The notes beneath the pieces were generated by a model that was not told where the DNA came from, made no database searches, and saw only the letters and a list, made by a program, of their open reading frames with translations. Source: Thermoanaerobacter wiegelii Rt8.B1 (GTDB lineage: Bacteria; Bacillota; Thermoanaerobacteria; Thermoanaerobacterales; Thermoanaerobacteraceae). Taken from it: a stretch of 64,000 bases of DNA. The stretch covers positions 1,480,001-1,544,000 of the forward strand of contig NC_015958.1 in NCBI RefSeq assembly GCF_000147695.2. The letters run 5' to 3'. The stretch's first letter is position 1. Each line of letters begins with the position of its first letter. This document shows, in pieces, positions 17,319 to 25,765 of the stretch. The translations under genes and the position numbers were made by a program.

Positions 17319-17870
17319 AGTCGGAAGAAGAACTGCAGAACAAATAATAGACGAAATCGGCACGAATATGGAACAGTTCCCCTCTGCTGCCCATTTGTAT
17401 TCTTGGGCAGGGCTGTGTCCAGGTCATAATGAAAGTGCTGGTAAACAAAAGTCTGCCAGAACTCGAAAAGGTAACCAAAAATTGCGAAGCTCTCTTATTG
17501 AAGCCGCCAGGGCTGCCTCAAGGGCAAAAGATACTTATCTCTCAAGTCAGTACCACCGCATCGCTGCTCGAAGAGGAGCAAACCGAGCAGCAGTTGCAGT
17601 GGCACATAGCATTTTAATTATAGTTTATCATATTCTCAAACGAAAGCAACCATATATTGAATTAGGTCCTACTTATTATGAAGAGAAAAAGCGTAATATG
17701 ATTATTCGTCAATCTTTAAAAAAGCTAGAGTCTTTAGGTCTTAAGGTCACGGTCGAATCTGCAGCGTCTTGACTTTTAATTTAACTTTATTAACCATTCA
17801 TTTATCCCATATTTTTACATCAGTATGGGTTTAGTTCTTTGTTGCCTTTTTGAGAGACACTATTTTCAGG
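17319..17870 (+). pseudogene. IS110-family transposase 3' fragment with right end
   Basis: This segment matches the last ~150 codons and the right terminus of the complete IS110 element at 21445-23034 with only scattered base changes. It encodes [20 protein letters not shown] and the Ser-containing [13 protein letters not shown] region, then the same downstream noncoding end TTTTCAGG. The left two thirds are gone, and the left junction abuts the type III res remnant. The right end still adjoins half a CRISPR repeat, so the copy had also inserted into a CRISPR repeat before truncation. Confidence 0.88.
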
Positions 17871-17954
17871 ATAGGTAGGCTAAAAACTCATTTCGCCTTT
17901 GCCATACATCACAAAGCATCTCCGTACTATTTTCAGGATAGGTAGGCTAAAAAC
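17858..17954 (-). CRISPR. Two hybrid IS110/CRISPR repeats around one spacer-like unit
   Basis: Two 30-base units (17858-17887 and 17925-17954) differ only in their first base. Each joins the last ~13 bases of the IS110 right end (ending TTTTCAGG) to ATAGGTAGGCTAAAAAC, the right half of the CRISPR repeat. Between them are 37 bases, the usual spacer size here. Identity ends at the 30-base boundary: bases before each unit are unrelated. After 17954 only 18 bases remain before the IS21 end. Confidence 0.75.
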
Positions 17955-18007
17955 ACTGCTATGATGTAATGGTGTAAAAGTCAATATATTTTTGTACAAA
18001 AAATGTA

Positions 18008-18400
18008 CTAAGATGCATTCGAAGAACTGTTAAAATATTCAACTTTTGACTTTAATCTATATGAAGGCCCTTTTATTGATATAACATGCGAATGATGAAG
18101 TAATCTATCCAATATTGCATTGGCTAATGTTGCTGATCCAAATACTTCTGCCCAATTAGAAAAGGGCATATTAGTTGTAATAATAGTACTATGCTTTTCA
18201 TACCTTTTAGATATTAGCTGAAAAAATATATTTGAAGCATCTGTGTCTATTGGTAAATACCCTACTTCGTCTATTATTAACACTTTATACTTTGAAAAAT
18301 GTTTTAATCGGATCTCTAAACGGTTTTCTGCTAATGCCTTTTTTAATTGAGACATTAATTCTTGAAAATGAATAAAATATGTAGAATATAATGCCCCCAT
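18008..18400 (-). pseudogene. istB: IstB ATPase, C-terminal part of a split gene
   Basis: This is the C-terminal 130 residues of the IS21 helper ATPase. Walker B is KVLIIDEVGYLPID, followed by NIFFQLISKRYEKHSTIITT and FGSATLANAILDRLLHHSHV. The N-terminal ~40 residues (MSNYIKLLNNLEELGLNN) lie at 19880-20000 behind AGGTAGGTG with a GTG start. The segment with the Walker A motif is absent on both sides of the IS3 insertion, so a deletion went with the insertion and the protein cannot be functional. Confidence 0.88.
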
Positions 18401-18664
18401 TTGTCAAGACAATTTTTTTAAAAATCTAAGTTAGATTTTTGCACCTCCTTTATTTTGATAATTTTATATAAAATGTAAGTTAGATACACAAAGTGAAGTT
18501 ATTTGTGTGTTTAGATTTATCACAATTAGTGCATACCATTTTAGATATTTGGACAGCTATGTCAAACATCAACATCTTAGTGATCTACAAGTTGTATATT
18601 ACTGATGCATCAAGGCATGGAATGAAAAGTTCACCACAGGGAACATGTGATAAATGCCACAGAT

Positions 18665-19564
18665 TTAGCCAGCTTGCACAAGAGTATTAGGTTTTCCGTA
18701 GTAATATTCAGCAGGTGTTCTATTCCCTAATGACTGGTGTGGTCTCTTATTGTTGTAATATTCAATATACTCTTGTGTTATTTTTCTTAGCTGATGCCCA
18801 GTTTCACAATCTTCCAAGTACAGCTTCTCCCATTTGTAGCTCCTAAAAAATCGTTCTATACGTTGATTGTCTAATGCTCTGCCAAAACTCACCATAGATA
18901 TTTTGATATTATTTTCTTTCAGCAAATTTATATAATCATCACAGGTAAACTGTGAGCCTTGATCACTGTTCATGATTTCTGGAGCTCCATGCTGCTTTAT
19001 GGCTTTCTTTATTGTATCAATAACAAATGTATGTTCAAGTGTATTAGACAGCCCATATCCTACAATATACCTAGATTACCAGTCTATTATGGCTACCATG
19101 TACATAAAGCCTCGTTTCATCCGACAATATGTTATATCTATTGACCATACTTGATTAGGATGATCAATGTTTAACCCTTTTAATAAGTATGGATAGAAAT
19201 ATTTGCTATGCAGTCTCTTACTAAGATTTGGCCCAGGGTAGAATCCGTGTATGCCCATTTCCCGCATATAGCGGCGAGTTCTTTTACGGTTGATAAGAAT
19301 TCCATAATCCCTCCTTAGTATAGTTGTCATTCTGCGATAGCCATATTCGGGATGGGCTGTATAAACCTCATCAATTATGCGCTTAATCATGTATTCTTCA
19401 TCGCTTGTTGGAACAGACTTGTAATAAAGGCTTGTACGATTAATGCCTAAGAGCTCAGCCTGTCTGCTGATACTAAGCTTTTTATCACCCCTATCAATCA
19501 TTTTCATGCGTTCCTCACGAGATTTAGAATTGGCCAGATTTTTTTTTAAGCCAGGCATTCTCAT
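18665..19564 (-). pseudogene. IS3-family OrfB transposase with in-frame stop
   Basis: The DDE integrase has an HTH_21 region (SISRQAELLGINRTSLYYKS), the first catalytic Asp in VWSIDITYCRMKRG, the second in NSDQGSQFT and the Glu in NQRIERFFRSYKWE. A TAA at 19076-19078 interrupts the frame in MVAIIDW-stop-SRYIVGYG, where a Tyr codon is expected, between the first and second catalytic residues. The second half (from 18973) retains no useful start. A single-base nonsense change is the simplest cause. It would normally be made by frameshifting from OrfA. Confidence 0.88.
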
Positions 19565-19817
19565 AAGAGAGCTGCCCTATTTGTTTTAATAATTCCTCCT
19601 TCTCCTTTTCATATGATCTTTTGACCTTTTCTAACTCGTCGGTTTCTTTGCTAAATACCTTTGCTGCATTATTGATAAATTCTGCTTTCCAGCGACTAAT
19701 CATATTCGGATGTATTTCATATTCAGCAGCGATTTCATTAAGCGTTTTTTCTTCTCGTAATGCCTCTAATACAATTTTGGCTTTTTGTTCTGGTGTAAAA
19801 TTTCTTCTCTTATTCAT
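19524..19817 (-). CDS. IS3-family OrfA, HTH protein
   Basis: This 97-residue protein is the DNA-binding OrfA of an IS3 element. RRNFTPEQKAKIVLEALRE and IAAEYEIHPNMISRWKAEF form the helix-turn-helix, followed by a leucine-zipper-like coiled coil (EKVKRSYEKEKEELLKQIG). It overlaps orfB by about 40 bases in another frame, as expected for programmed frameshifting. The gene is intact, but its partner is not. Confidence 0.88.
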   Translation of the reverse strand: MNKRRNFTPEQKAKIVLEALREEKTLNEIAAEYEIHPNMISRWKAEFINNAAKVFSKETDELEKVKRSYEKEKEELLKQIGQLSYENAWLKKKSGQF

Positions 19818-20037
19818 AACTATATTCTAACTTATTTTTGCCTTTTTGTCTGTCTAGTTTTCTGGTATCATTATACATATAGAGCATCTAACACTTTTTT
19901 CTCCTGATTTAATCAGGTTTAAGTACATATCTATATTATTTTTTATGTTATTTAATCCAAGTTCTTCTAAATTGTTTAATAGCTTAATATAGTTACTCAC
20001 ATTTTCACCTACCTCTGCAATAATTTATCTAATTCTA

Positions 20038-21213
20038 TTAAGTATTATTTGTACATATTTGTTCAATATCTTCTCTATTTTTGATGAGATTTTCCATTAA
20101 TTCTCTATAATGAGATTCATGATAGTTTATCTTTTTATCACTTAATATATGGACAGATATCAAATCTGTGTTAAAATATACATGTAACTCATTTTCTACT
20201 GTTTTAAGAGTTACAGTTTTGTTTATATATTTTGGAGGGACTGAGTATCTACTCCCTTTGTAATATATCATAGAATCTTTATGGACAGTTGCTTTTTGCT
20301 CGAAGTTCATATAACTTTCTATGATATCATTAGTTGGTAGCGGAGATAGATACTCCTTTTCTTTTTGGAATAATATTATCGGTTGTATCCCTGTTGATTG
20401 ATTTGTGGATTGATTAACCTTTTTGTTTATTTCATCAATTATCTTTATTAAATCTTCTTCATTTTCAAATTCACCATTGTATGGCAGTAACCAATCAATA
20501 AATTTATTAGATGATTCCACCTTTCCTTTGGTATATGAATGTCTTGGTTTACATAAGCGTATCTTAAAGCCAAAATCATTTGCAAATGCTTTTATTTTAT
20601 TATTTATCTTCCTCCCATCGTTTGTTATATCAACTACTGTTTTCATATTGTCAAAAAGTATTTCCTCCGGAACACCTCCTGTAGCTTTAAATGCGTTTAT
20701 CAAGCATTCAACTACATCTTGTTGAGTTTTTGCTTTCCTATATTCAAAGTAGCAATATCTTGAATATCCAAGTTTATAGTTAAATACATTAACAACGAAT
20801 TCTTCTCCATATCTCGAAACTAATTTTATGTCTTCCTTCCAATCTACCTGGGCCTGTTTTCCCGCAGGAGTTTCAAATCGTGGATGACCACTTGCTTTTT
20901 TAGTAGGTTTCAGCCCCTTTCTCTTTACATATTTGTTGAAATTAGAATATGTCCCAATATCATAATTTTTAGAAACAAAGTATTCATATACTCCCTTTAC
21001 CGTAACCCCCTTTATTTCAAGCTTTGCTTTTATTTCATCATAGTATTTATCTAATTTACTTTGTTTATTTCTTGTTTTTGGCTTGCCTTCATATCCTTCA
21101 TAATACTTTTTAACAGTTCTCCTATCTACTCCATATTCTCTTGCTAATTCTGAAAAATTAGGTTTTATCTCCATAGCTTTAAATATACTAATTTCACCTA
21201 ATAGATTTTTCAT
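20038..21213 (-). CDS. istA: IS21-family transposase IstA
   Basis: The 391-residue DDE transposase begins with a helix-turn-helix (NFSELAREYGVDRRTVKKYYEG). The first catalytic Asp is in AGKQAQVDWKEDIKL, the second in EEILFDNMKTVVD and the Glu in YTKGKVESSNKFIDWLLPY. The ATG at 21213 is chosen because GGAGGG lies just before; a longer frame would start at the element's terminal repeats. It appears intact, but without IstB the element is not self-mobile. Confidence 0.9.
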   Translation of the reverse strand: MKNLLGEISIFKAMEIKPNFSELAREYGVDRRTVKKYYEGYEGKPKTRNKQSKLDKYYDEIKAKLEIKGVTVKGVYEYFVSKNYDIGTYSNFNKYVKRKGLKPTKKASGHPRFETPAGKQAQVDWKEDIKLVSRYGEEFVVNVFNYKLGYSRYCYFEYRKAKTQQDVVECLINAFKATGGVPEEILFDNMKTVVDITNDGRKINNKIKAFANDFGFKIRLCKPRHSYTKGKVESSNKFIDWLLPYNGEFENEEDLIKIIDEINKKVNQSTNQSTGIQPIILFQKEKEYLSPLPTNDIIESYMNFEQKATVHKDSMIYYKGSRYSVPPKYINKTVTLKTVENELHVYFNTDLISVHILSDKKINYHESHYRELMENLIKNREDIEQICTNNT

Positions 21214-21310
21214 TTTTGGTATCCCTCCTACAAACAGAAGGATACCAAATTTATGTACAAATTTGTACATTTTTATTTTCCACTTTTCGTACATTCTTAT
21301 TTTATCATTT

Positions 21311-21444
21311 ACAGGCTAAAAACTTTTCTAAAGCAGACTTGTATCGACTAGAAGGGGAGAGTTTCAATTCCTTATAGGTAGGCTAAAAACGAGGCTGGGC
21401 TTTTCAACGCTGCGACAGGTGGTACAAGTTTCAATTCCTTATAG
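21311..21444 (-). CRISPR. Trailer-end CRISPR remnant cut by IS21 and IS110
   Basis: From left: the last bases of a repeat (to 21323), a 37-base spacer, a full 30-base repeat (21361-21390) starting GTTTCAATTCC, a second 37-base spacer, and the left half of a repeat ending CCTTATAG at 21444 where the IS110 element begins. The repeats start with G instead of the C used in the main array, consistent with older trailer repeats. This is the continuation of the array at 23022-25765. Confidence 0.88.
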
Positions 21445-21512
21445 ACTCCCATGCCGCAAATGCGGCACCAGCAGAGGATGAAAATGTCCTTTTTTGATGA
21501 TATAATCAGTAC

Positions 21513-21660
21513 AGCGGCTGGTGAAGAAAGGTCGTTCTTACCTTGGTGCTTTGAGCCCGACTCATAGACAGACTCCAACGACCAGGTGCACCACAGATTG
21601 TTGCTCCCTTTACGGGAAGCACGCAGGATAGAATAACCCCTTATGGTTGTTGCACCAGCT
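21513..21660 (+). ncRNA. Candidate IS110 bridge RNA
   Basis: A TATAAT (21501-21506) precedes a strongly structured noncoding stretch that ends about 55 bases before the transposase start. Two loops are closed by perfect stems: GGTCGTT/AACGACC (21530-21536 with 21577-21583) and GGTGCA/TGCACC (21585-21590 with 21651-21656). The first loop holds CTTACCT and CTCATAG, which fit the right and left CRISPR-repeat target with one wobble and one mismatch. The second holds CAGGATAG (21624-21631), identical to the element's right end plus core. This agrees with target- and donor-binding loops of IS110 bridge RNAs. Confidence 0.65.
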
Positions 21661-21715
21661 CTTCAATTTTACAGTCGCTATCGTTCAAATTTTAAAAAAA
21701 GGAGTTGGCTCTTTC

Positions 21716-22936
21716 ATGGATTTAGTTTACTCTCACGTTTGCGGATTAGATGTCCATAAAAAGAATGTCGTAGCTTGTATAATAACACCAGAAGGTAAAG
21801 AAATCAGTACTTTTTCAACTATGACCGATGACCTTATTGCATTAAAAGAATTTATTAAAGCTAAAGGTTGTTCTGTTGTTGCTATGGAAAGTACCGGCTC
21901 TTATTGGAAACCTATTTACAATCTACTTGAGCTTGAGAGCATTAAAATCCTACTCGTCAATGCTAAGCATATTAAAAATGTCCCTGGTAGAAAAACCGAT
22001 GTAAAAGATGCTGAGTGGATAGCAAGTCTCTTACAACATGGCCTTTTGCAAGGCAGCTTTGTGCCAGATCGTGAACAAAGAGAACTTCGCGAGCTTGTAC
22101 GCTATAGAAAAAGCCTCATTGAAGAAAAATCAAGAGAACTTAATCGCATACAAAAGGTTTTAGAAGGAGCTAATATCAAACTGTCTTCCGTAGTCTCTGA
22201 TATCAACGGGGCATCCAGTCGTTCTATACTTGAGGCTATTATAAATGGTGAAGAAAATCCCGAAACCCTGGCTGAGCTTTCTCAAGGCAAGCTAAAAAAT
22301 AAAATGGATGAACTAAAACGCGCTTTAAAAGGCTTGATCAATCATCACCAAAGGATGCTTCTGGAAATACAGCTTAGACACATTGATTACCTTGATGAAG
22401 AAATAGCAAAATTAGACGAAGAAATTAAAAATCGAATGCTCCCTTTTGAAAAAGACCTGGCACTGCTGGATACAATCCCTGGAGTCGGAAGAAGAACTGC
22501 AGAACAAATAATAGCCGAAATCGGCACGAATATGGAACAGTTCCCTTCTGCTGCCCATTTGTGTTCTTGGGCAGGGTTGTGTCCAGGTCATAATGAAAGT
22601 GCTGGTAAACAAAAGTCTGCAAGAACTCGAAAAGGTAACCAAAAATTGCGAAGCTCTCTTATTGAAGCTGCCAGAGCTGCCTCAAGGGCAAAAGATACTT
22701 ATCTCTCAAGTCAGTACCACCGCATCGCTGCTCGAAGAGGAGCAAACCGTGCAGCAGTTGCAGTGGCACATAGCATTTTAATTATAGTTTATCATATTCT
22801 CAAGCAAAAGCAACCATATATTGAATTAGGTCCTACTTATTATGAAGAGAAAAAGCGTAATATGATTATTCGTCAATCTTTAAAAAAGCTAGAGTCTTTA
22901 GGCCTTAAGGTCACGGTCGAATCTGCAGTGTCTTAA
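21716..22936 (+). CDS. IS110-family DEDD transposase (recombinase)
   Basis: The 406-residue recombinase has the RuvC-like N-terminal domain: [15 protein letters not shown] (Asp), [13 protein letters not shown] (Glu) and [16 protein letters not shown] (Asp-Asp). A coiled-coil middle follows. The C-terminal Tnp20 domain contains [17 protein letters not shown] and the Ser motif [12 protein letters not shown]. The ATG at 21716 follows AAAGGAG with good spacing; starting further upstream would enter the structured RNA. All catalytic residues are intact, so the element may be active. Confidence 0.93.
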
Positions 22937-23021
22937 CTTTTAATTTAACTTTATTAACCATTCATTTATCCCATATTTTTACATCGGTATGGGTTTAGTT
23001 TTTTGTTGCCTTTTTGAGAGA

Positions 23022-25765
23022 CACTATTTTCAGGATAGGTAGGCTAAAAACATGTTAGGAGTAGAAGACAAGTATCAGGAGAACGACATCTTTCAATTCC
23101 TTATAGGTAGGCTAAAAACAATGGTTAAGTTGTGTTTTGTGAAGTAAAGGCCCTGCTTTCAATTCCTTATAGGTAGGCTAAAAACTTGAGCAAAAAGAAT
23201 TTTTAGCTTTTGTGGATTACAGCTTTCAATTCCTTATAGGTAGGCTAAAAACTACCATCCTCAATTGCGTAAACTTCAAGTGGGTACATCTTTCAATTCC
23301 TTATAGGTAGGCTAAAAACTTTTAAATCAAACATCTTCCACCACCCCTCCTATATCTTTCAATTCCTTATAGGTAGGCTAAAAACCAAGCATTGGTAATG
23401 TTATACCTATCGCAAGTGCATCTTTCAATTCCTTATAGGTAGGCTAAAAACGCAAAAATATCGTGACAAATTCTACAAAGTTGCATTCTTTCAATTCCTT
23501 ATAGGTAGGCTAAAAACACATTGAAATTACAGATAAACCAAGCATTATCCCTTCTTTCAATTCCTTATAGGTAGGCTAAAAACGAGGGCTAGCAAGCCCT
23601 TTTTATTTTATGTTCATGACTTTCAATTCCTTATAGGTAGGCTAAAAACTCTGTTAGCCATATATTATCTTTTGAGGAAATTTGTCTTTCAATTCCTTAT
23701 AGGTAGGCTAAAAACGCACAGGCAGGAAGAAAGTTTGTCATACGTGAGAACTTTCAATTCCTTATAGGTAGGCTAAAAACGTCCCGGCAAAGATGCGGAC
23801 AAGTGGATGCCAAACTCTTTCAATTCCTTATAGGTAGGCTAAAAACTGTGTGACGATGTCTTTTACGATAGCGCCCAAAGTTCTTTCAATTCCTTATAGG
23901 TAGGCTAAAAACTACGAAATGCTACTACAACTAAAGGACGATATATCCTTTCAATTCCTTATAGGTAGGCTAAAAACACGTTATAGCAGAACCAACGCCA
24001 GAAATAACACCATCTTTCAATTCCTTATAGGTAGGCTAAAAACCGAAAGCTGGCTTCATTATAGCACCAAATGTCATATCTTTCAATTCCTTATAGGTAG
24101 GCTAAAAACCAAATTCCCTTAAATCTTCATCTTTTACTAGTCGCACTTTCAATTCCTTATAGGTAGGCTAAAAACGATGGAATAAAAGGGAAGAAAGAAA
24201 AGTATATTGGAGTCTTTCAATTCCTTATAGGTAGGCTAAAAACTCAAGGGTGGGATAAATATGACAGACTTCATATATACTTTCAATTCCTTATAGGTAG
24301 GCTAAAAACTTGTATGGCCCTTCGGGGCCTCTTTTTTTATGCCTTCTTTCAATTCCTTATAGGTAGGCTAAAAACAATAAAAGAGTAAAGAATATAAGAA
24401 TATATGCATATACTTTCAATTCCTTATAGGTAGGCTAAAAACTTGGTAGGCGAAGACGGATTCGCCTACATAGACGATGCTTTCAATTCCTTATAGGTAG
24501 GCTAAAAACTCTGTTTAGTTTTTCTCTGCTTATCTCAGATAAAAACTTTCAATTCCTTATAGGTAGGCTAAAAACCAATTTTGTTTTTTAATTCATCTGA
24601 CAGTGTGTGTACTTTCAATTCCTTATAGGTAGGCTAAAAACGTATTATCTTTAAAAGCCTCGGCAAACTTCCATATTACCTTTCAATTCCTTATAGGTAG
24701 GCTAAAAACTCGGCATCAAGTGTTAGTTGTAAAATACCATACCCATCTTTCAATTCCTTATAGGTAGGCTAAAAACTATTGTAGACGAAATGTCAATGGT
24801 GGGGAATGATGCTTTCAATTCCTTATAGGTAGGCTAAAAACGTATGCACTATATGGCGGTCACAGGAGCAAAAAAACTTTCAATTCCTTATAGGTAGGCT
24901 AAAAACCAATTTTCCTTTGTTCTTCTTTCCTTCTAGCTAGCTTTCAATTCCTTATAGGTAGGCTAAAAACCAAAAATATATTTAAAGCCATTAAAAAGCT
25001 TGCAGACTTTCAATTCCTTATAGGTAGGCTAAAAACTATTTAGCCTCCCCTCTTATATAGTCTCCTATCCAGCTTTCAATTCCTTATAGGTAGGCTAAAA
25101 ACTTGTTGAGCCAAGGTACTGTACGGAACTGTACTGTGCTTTCAATTCCTTATAGGTAGGCTAAAAACTTAGGATAATTAAGGCTATTGAAGAAGAAGAA
25201 AACAACTTTCAATTCCTTATAGGTAGGCTAAAAACCAACAACATCAGGAACAGCTACAGTAACAGCTTCATGCTTTCAATTCCTTATAGGTAGGCTAAAA
25301 ACAAGATGATGAAATTGAAATATACATAGATAAATTCGTCTTTCAATTCCTTATAGGTAGGCTAAAAACTATAAATGTGTGGAATGCTCAAGAAAGAGCA
25401 TTTTACTTTCAATTCCTTATAGGTAGGCTAAAAACTTATAAGCTTTTTGAGGTTTATGTCAGACGAGCTACTTTCAATTCCTTATAGGTAGGCTAAAAAC
25501 CTATACCGCAAATATAAGGCGGTGGCATAGATGTACTTTCAATTCCTTATAGGTAGGCTAAAAACTCGGCCATCTTCTATATTGATTAGCCACTGCATCC
25601 CAGCTTTCAATTCCTTATAGGTAGGCTAAAAACGAGAATTAGAATTATACAAAAGCATTTATAAAAAGTCTTTCAATTCCTTATAGGTAGGCTAAAAACC
25701 CACAATCTTATACCTTGCCATTTTAACCCTCCCTTCTTTCAATTCCTTATAGGTAGGCTAAAAAC
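23022..25765 (-). CRISPR. CRISPR array: 41 intact repeats plus one IS110 hybrid repeat
   Basis: Forty-one copies of a 30-base repeat (plus-strand CTTTCAATTCC to GGTAGGCTAAAAAC) run from 23090 to 25765 with 36-39-base spacers, a period near 66. The left-most unit (23022-23051) is a hybrid of IS110 right end and half repeat. On the minus strand the repeat starts GTTTTTAGCC and ends GGAATTGAAAG, so the crRNA 5' handle would be ATTGAAAG, as in type I-B/III systems of clostridia. The leader and promoter are therefore on the right. I counted repeats by eye. No cas gene lies within the window. Confidence 0.96.

What the first reader, a model, noticed from the sequence alone, without database searches (positions are those of the whole stretch)
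17858..17954. Hybrid IS110/CRISPR repeat duplicated over exactly one repeat length around a spacer-sized insert
An IS110 insertion turned a CRISPR repeat into a hybrid (13 bases of IS right end + ATAG + right half repeat). That hybrid occurs twice, identical for 29 of 30 bases, with identity ending at the 30-base boundary and 37 unrelated bases between. This is the product expected if Cas1-Cas2 used the hybrid as template, cutting one end by sequence and the other by a fixed-length ruler. It would mean adaptation tolerates replacement of nearly half the repeat, including the 5' handle of the crRNA. Two independent insertions plus deletion are possible but would not predict the exact 30-base limit.
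Basis: partly seen in the sequence, partly recalled or inferred. Interest (0 to 1): 0.85.

Follow-up and report, generated by a model that had tools for sequence, protein, structure and literature searches.

The report
Transposon-altered CRISPR repeat copied by adaptation
A jumping gene replaced nearly half of a CRISPR repeat, and the bacterium's memory-making machinery then copied that damaged repeat at normal length while storing a new spacer; an unrelated bacterium shows the same event, which is natural evidence that the machinery measures part of the repeat by distance rather than reading it.

Summary
Two copies of a hybrid IS110/CRISPR repeat (17859-17887 and 17926-17954) match over 29 consecutive bases. 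Base 30 differs (C vs T), and 37 spacer-sized bases lie between. Only the left copy is attached to IS110 sequence.

In Desulforamulus putei DSM 12395, a complete type I-B operon (Cas1 69% identical to that of the window's genome) is followed by leader, hybrid repeat, 39-bp spacer, hybrid repeat and IS110 end. The IS-free copy directly abuts the leader, where adaptation places new repeats. Identity there runs 31 bases leftward from the repeat/leader border, against a 30-bp native repeat.

Best explanation: IS110 inserted into a leader-proximal repeat, and Cas4-Cas1-Cas2 then used the hybrid as template. It needed the leader-proximal 17 bp and placed the second cut by distance (about 30±1 bp), tolerating 8-9 changes in the leader-distal 13 bp.

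In the window the leader is no longer next to the hybrid; an IS21 without target-site duplication marks a rearrangement. No protospacer was found. Rulers are already known for types I-B, I-E and II-A; natural, recurrent copying of a transposon-made repeat is the new part.

The parts
17319..17870 (+). 3' remnant of an IS110-family element (end of the transposase gene and right terminus ...GAGAGACACTATTTTCAGG)
   Evidence: 97% identical to the intact IS110 at 21445-23034 over the 300-nt stretch compared; right end shared with other copies
17858..17887 (-). hybrid repeat 1: IS110 end (13 nt) + ATAG + right half repeat; contiguous with IS110, so the original insertion junction (crRNA sense is the minus strand)
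17888..17924 (-). 37-bp spacer-like unit (38 bp if the copied repeat is 29 bp)
   Evidence: length inside the spacer range; unique in 20 family genomes at 3 mismatches; no phage, plasmid or viral-contig match
17925..17954 (-). hybrid repeat 2: IS-free copy, 29 of 30 identical, on the leader side of repeat 1
17955..17972 (.). 18 bp, probably a truncated further spacer; resembles none of the leaders seen
17973..21313 (.). IS21-family-like element (with nested IS3-like element about 18391-19875) joining two formerly separate array pieces; flanks AATGG and GGCTA do not form a target-site duplication
   Evidence: an intact copy at G000:2201716 has a 5-bp CTGAG duplication, the window copy has none
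21314..21444 (-). right end of a repeat, spacer, native repeat (21361-21390), spacer, left half-repeat (21428-21444)
21445..23034 (+). intact IS110-family element inserted in a repeat (transposase 21716-22936)
   Evidence: PF01548 and PF02371
23022..23051 (-). hybrid repeat of the intact IS110, not duplicated
23090..25765 (-). CRISPR array of 41 native 30-bp repeats, leader on the right from 25766

Best explanation
An IS110-family element inserted into a CRISPR repeat of a type I-B array at its ATAG core, replacing the leader-distal 13 bp of the repeat with its own right end while leaving the leader-proximal 17 bp (crRNA sense GTTTTTAGCCTACCTAT) intact. While that hybrid was the first repeat next to the leader, Cas4-Cas1-Cas2 integrated a new spacer there: it cut at the intact leader/repeat border and placed the second cut at a fixed distance of about 30 bp, which now lay inside IS sequence. 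Repair then duplicated the hybrid. Shown: the two copies, the size of the insert, the IS-attached and IS-free copies in the expected order, and an independent case abutting the leader. Inferred: the enzyme, and that the window's copy 1 was leader-proximal at the time. A rearrangement at an IS21 later separated the hybrid piece from its leader (inferred).
For: Window: 29-nt identity, 37-bp insert, IS-free copy on the leader side. D. putei DSM 12395: leader - hybrid - 39-bp spacer - hybrid - IS110 end, next to a full I-B operon. Its leader aligns with the leader of the second D. putei locus, where a native repeat abuts it. The events are independent: different IS110 ends (ACTATTTTCAGG vs TTTAATTTTCAGG), different spacers, Cas1 69% identical. 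The window genome has one Cas1, of type I-B, with Cas4 and Cas2. Array-specific first bases (C in 41 of 41, G in 85 of 85) show that in native repeats the copied unit spans all 30 bp. Rulers placing the second cut at a set distance have been reported for types I-B, I-E and II-A (PMC6895254).
Against: In the window, identity is 29 rather than 30, the leader is not adjacent, and no protospacer was found. Identity in D. putei is 31 leftward from the leader border, so neither case is exactly 30; a one-base change, a chance match or a ruler slack of one base must be allowed. IS110 can occupy neighbouring repeats (G004, L031), so the starting point of the two-insertion model exists.
Confidence: 0.88

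Rival explanations
1. Two IS110 copies inserted in neighbouring repeats; a deletion then removed the second element plus the left half-repeat, leaving only its last 12 bases.
For: IS110 often sits in these repeats (17 of 22 ends in the family), and two elements one spacer apart exist in G004 (L031).
Against: The deletion would have to end exactly at the spacer edge on one side and 12-14 bp from the IS end on the other, twice and independently. If the retained IS length were uniform over about 1590 bp, landing within one base of 13 both times has probability about 4e-6 (a rough null). It does not predict leader adjacency in D. putei.
Confidence: 0.06
2. Gene conversion or template switching copied the IS-derived left half of hybrid 1 onto the neighbouring native repeat.
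For: The 17-bp right half repeat gives some homology.
Against: There is no homology on the other side, so the tract would have to end at the repeat border by chance, in both species.
Confidence: 0.03
3. A DNA-level tandem duplication or IS110 recombinase by-product, with no CRISPR enzyme involved.
For: The region is rich in IS elements and rearranged.
Against: A tandem duplication would repeat the spacer too; the sequence after copy 2 (ACTGCTATG...) differs from the spacer (TCATTTCG...). IS110 recombination exchanges at the core and would not be expected to keep 12 bp of the IS next to a spacer (reasoning from how IS110 recombines).
Confidence: 0.03

Closest known systems
Ruler-defined repeat duplication in CRISPR adaptation (types I-B, I-E, II-A)
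   Same: The second integration site is set at a distance from an internal repeat element, keeping repeat length (PMC6895254).
   Different: Known from engineered insertions and deletions in repeats; here a transposon made the change in nature, and the product was inherited in two genera.
Type I-B CRISPR-Cas adaptation module (Cas4-Cas1b-Cas2)
   Same: Both genomes carry Cas1b and Cas4 and Cas2 (D. putei; window genome by sequence), with 30-bp repeats.
   Different: The template repeat lacks most of the 8-nt crRNA handle sequence.
IS110-family insertion sequences
   Same: The transposase has the DEDD_Tnp_IS110 and Transposase_20 domains.
   Different: This group preferentially occupies the CRISPR repeat ...CTTATAG/GTAGGC... 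(17 of 22 ends).

Membership tests
Product of CRISPR adaptation | Repeat duplicated at repeat length around a spacer-sized insert | tested here: met
   29 of 30 with a 37-bp insert (window); 31-nt identity with a 38-39-bp insert (D. putei); native repeat 30 bp, spacers mostly 34-40 bp
Product of CRISPR adaptation | New repeat on the leader side, next to the leader | tested here: met
   Met in D. putei; in the window copy 2 is on the leader side but the leader is no longer adjacent
Product of CRISPR adaptation | Insert derives from foreign DNA with a PAM | tested here: inconclusive
   No protospacer in phages, plasmids, viral contigs or family genomes
Product of CRISPR adaptation | Cas1 and Cas2 present and apparently intact | tested here: met
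   Open reading frames with full-length Cas1b matches, plus Cas2 and Cas4; activity not tested
Type I-B CRISPR-Cas | cas8b, cas7, cas5b, cas3, cas6 with cas4-cas1-cas2 | tested here: met
   All found beside the D. putei array; in the window genome only cas4-cas1-cas2 was examined
IS110 family | DEDD transposase with C-terminal Transposase_20 domain | tested here: met
   PF01548 and PF02371
IS110 family | Bridge RNA guiding target choice | tested here: inconclusive
   Only short matches to target and donor in the left-end non-coding region; no Rfam family hit there

The most novel reading that the evidence does not exclude
IS110 landing in the leader-proximal repeat rewrites the array's heritable template: every later repeat is a copy of the hybrid, so new spacers get crRNAs with a foreign handle. 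The element would thereby disable or re-route CRISPR memory without touching cas genes, and its preference for CRISPR repeats would be a selected trait.
Probability: 0.15. Interest if true: 0.8.

Novelty: new variant of a known kind. Interest (0 to 1): 0.64.

Why it matters
It is a natural experiment, repeated in two genera, on which part of a type I-B repeat adaptation reads and which part it only measures. It indicates that the leader-proximal 17 bp plus the leader suffice and that most of the crRNA handle sequence is not checked during acquisition. It gives ready-made substrates for integration assays and shows how mobile elements can change the repeat that an array propagates.

Tried and rejected
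Protospacer searches for both spacers gave only chance-level matches. The idea that 17955-17972 is a leader was rejected: it resembles no leader seen and is unique in the family. The idea that 17858-25765 is one continuous array was rejected because the IS21 between its parts has no target duplication, whereas an intact copy does. The idea that the last repeat base comes from a PAM was rejected because it is constant within each array and differs between arrays. A search for further pairs of IS110 ends one spacer apart, in two overlapping samples of 398 genomes of the phylum each, found only the two known cases. Searches for papers on IS110 hybrids of CRISPR repeats found none among those held. 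The Haloarcula hispanica (I-B), E. coli (I-E) and Pyrococcus furiosus ruler papers are not held.

Full report
What is there. The window belongs to one contig of a 2.79-Mb genome (G000). Its native CRISPR repeat is 30 bp, (C/G)TTTCAATTCCTTATAGGTAGGCTAAAAAC on the plus strand. The crRNA sense is the minus strand (ATTGAAAC at the repeat end, from knowledge of such repeats), and leaders lie on the right: flanks there are shared between arrays and relatives, while degenerate end repeats lie on the left. An IS110-family element sits in repeats at 21445-23034 and at about G000:2671823-2673410, each time leaving CTTATAG|IS|TTTTCAGGATAG|GTAGGCTAAAAAC. The finding is a third such junction (17859-17887), attached to a truncated IS110, followed by 37 bp and a second, IS-free copy of the hybrid (17926-17954). 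The two copies share 29 consecutive bases; base 1 of the 30 differs, C vs T.

Uniqueness. In 20 genomes of the family there are 22 ends of this IS110 group with the exact 13-base right end, 17 of them in CRISPR repeats (counted by hand). Copy 2 in the window is the only hybrid repeat without an IS110 end in front of it.

The independent case. A scan of 84,980 species genomes for the hybrid junction found six stretches. One, Desulforamulus putei DSM 12395 (L041, L058), has two copies 69 bp apart. In plus orientation it reads IS110 end - TTTAATTTTCAGGATAGGTAGGCTAAAAAC - 39 bp - the same 30 bp - CGTCAGAGTGCCC. The sequence right of copy 2 aligns with the sequence right of the native leader-proximal repeat at the second D. 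putei locus (L042, CCATCAGAAAGCCC), so it is a leader. Identity runs 31 bases leftward from that border (one base beyond the 30-bp repeat), plus one C past it. Right next to it stand open cas2, cas1 and cas4 genes, with cas3, cas5b, cas7, cas8b and cas6 further on: a complete type I-B operon. Cas1 is 69% identical to the single Cas1 of the window genome, also type I-B. IS ends, spacers and hosts differ, so the events are independent.

Mechanism. Adaptation duplicates the leader-proximal repeat and puts the new copy on the leader side. That predicts the order IS - hybrid - spacer - hybrid - leader, a copied length of about 30 and a spacer-sized insert. All three hold in D. putei; in the window all but leader adjacency can be seen. 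The leader-proximal 17 bp are native in both hybrids. Of the leader-distal 13 bp, 9 (window, against the G-type repeat) and 8 (D. putei) differ from the native repeat; TTC at positions 8-10 happens to be kept in both, so a need for those three bases is not excluded. The second cut therefore fell at about the normal distance although the sequence there was foreign. This agrees with ruler mechanisms reported for types I-B, I-E and II-A (PMC6895254).

Why the window array looks odd. Native repeats lie to the leader side of the hybrids, which continued adaptation from a hybrid would not give. The IS21-like element at 17973-21313 explains this. An intact copy elsewhere is flanked by a 5-bp duplication (CTGAG), but this one has AATGG on one side and GGCTA on the other. 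The hybrid piece and the native array piece were thus probably joined by a later rearrangement. The 18 bp after copy 2 match no leader and nothing in the family, so they are probably a further, truncated spacer.

Limits. No protospacer was found for either spacer. Neither identity length is exactly 30 (29 and 31), which calls for one mutation, a chance match, or one base of slack. Activity of the enzymes was not tested. The D. putei genome is a draft and the array lies near a contig end, although the pair itself and the leader are inside the contig.

Noticed in passing
window 21445-23034; about G000:2671823-2673410; L048, L049 (G004): An IS110 group prefers CRISPR repeats as its target: 17 of 22 ends in the family lie in repeats, with six insertions inside about 17 kb in G004.
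   Followed up: partly
window 21560-21650: The non-coding left end of the IS110 has short matches to its junctions (CAGGATAGA at 21624 and AGACTCC at 21570 to the donor, CCTTAT at 21639 to the repeat), as might be expected for a bridge RNA with guides for the CRISPR repeat.
   Followed up: partly
window 23090-25765 and G000:2673465-2679131: The first base of the repeat is C in 41 of 41 repeats of one array and G in 85 of 85 of the other; the related G004 array with the same leader has G, so a single-base change appears to have been copied through a whole array.
   Followed up: partly
window 17973-21313: IS21-family-like element carrying a nested IS3-like element, flanked by unlike CRISPR pieces without a target-site duplication.
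   Followed up: yes
L058 7578-8827: Another IS110-type transposase, apparently split into two frames, sits between cas5b and cas3 in the D. putei I-B operon.
   Followed up: no
L042 about 6150-6080 (minus strand): A short element with IS110-like left and right ends and no transposase lies just beyond the second D. putei leader, perhaps a MITE.
   Followed up: no
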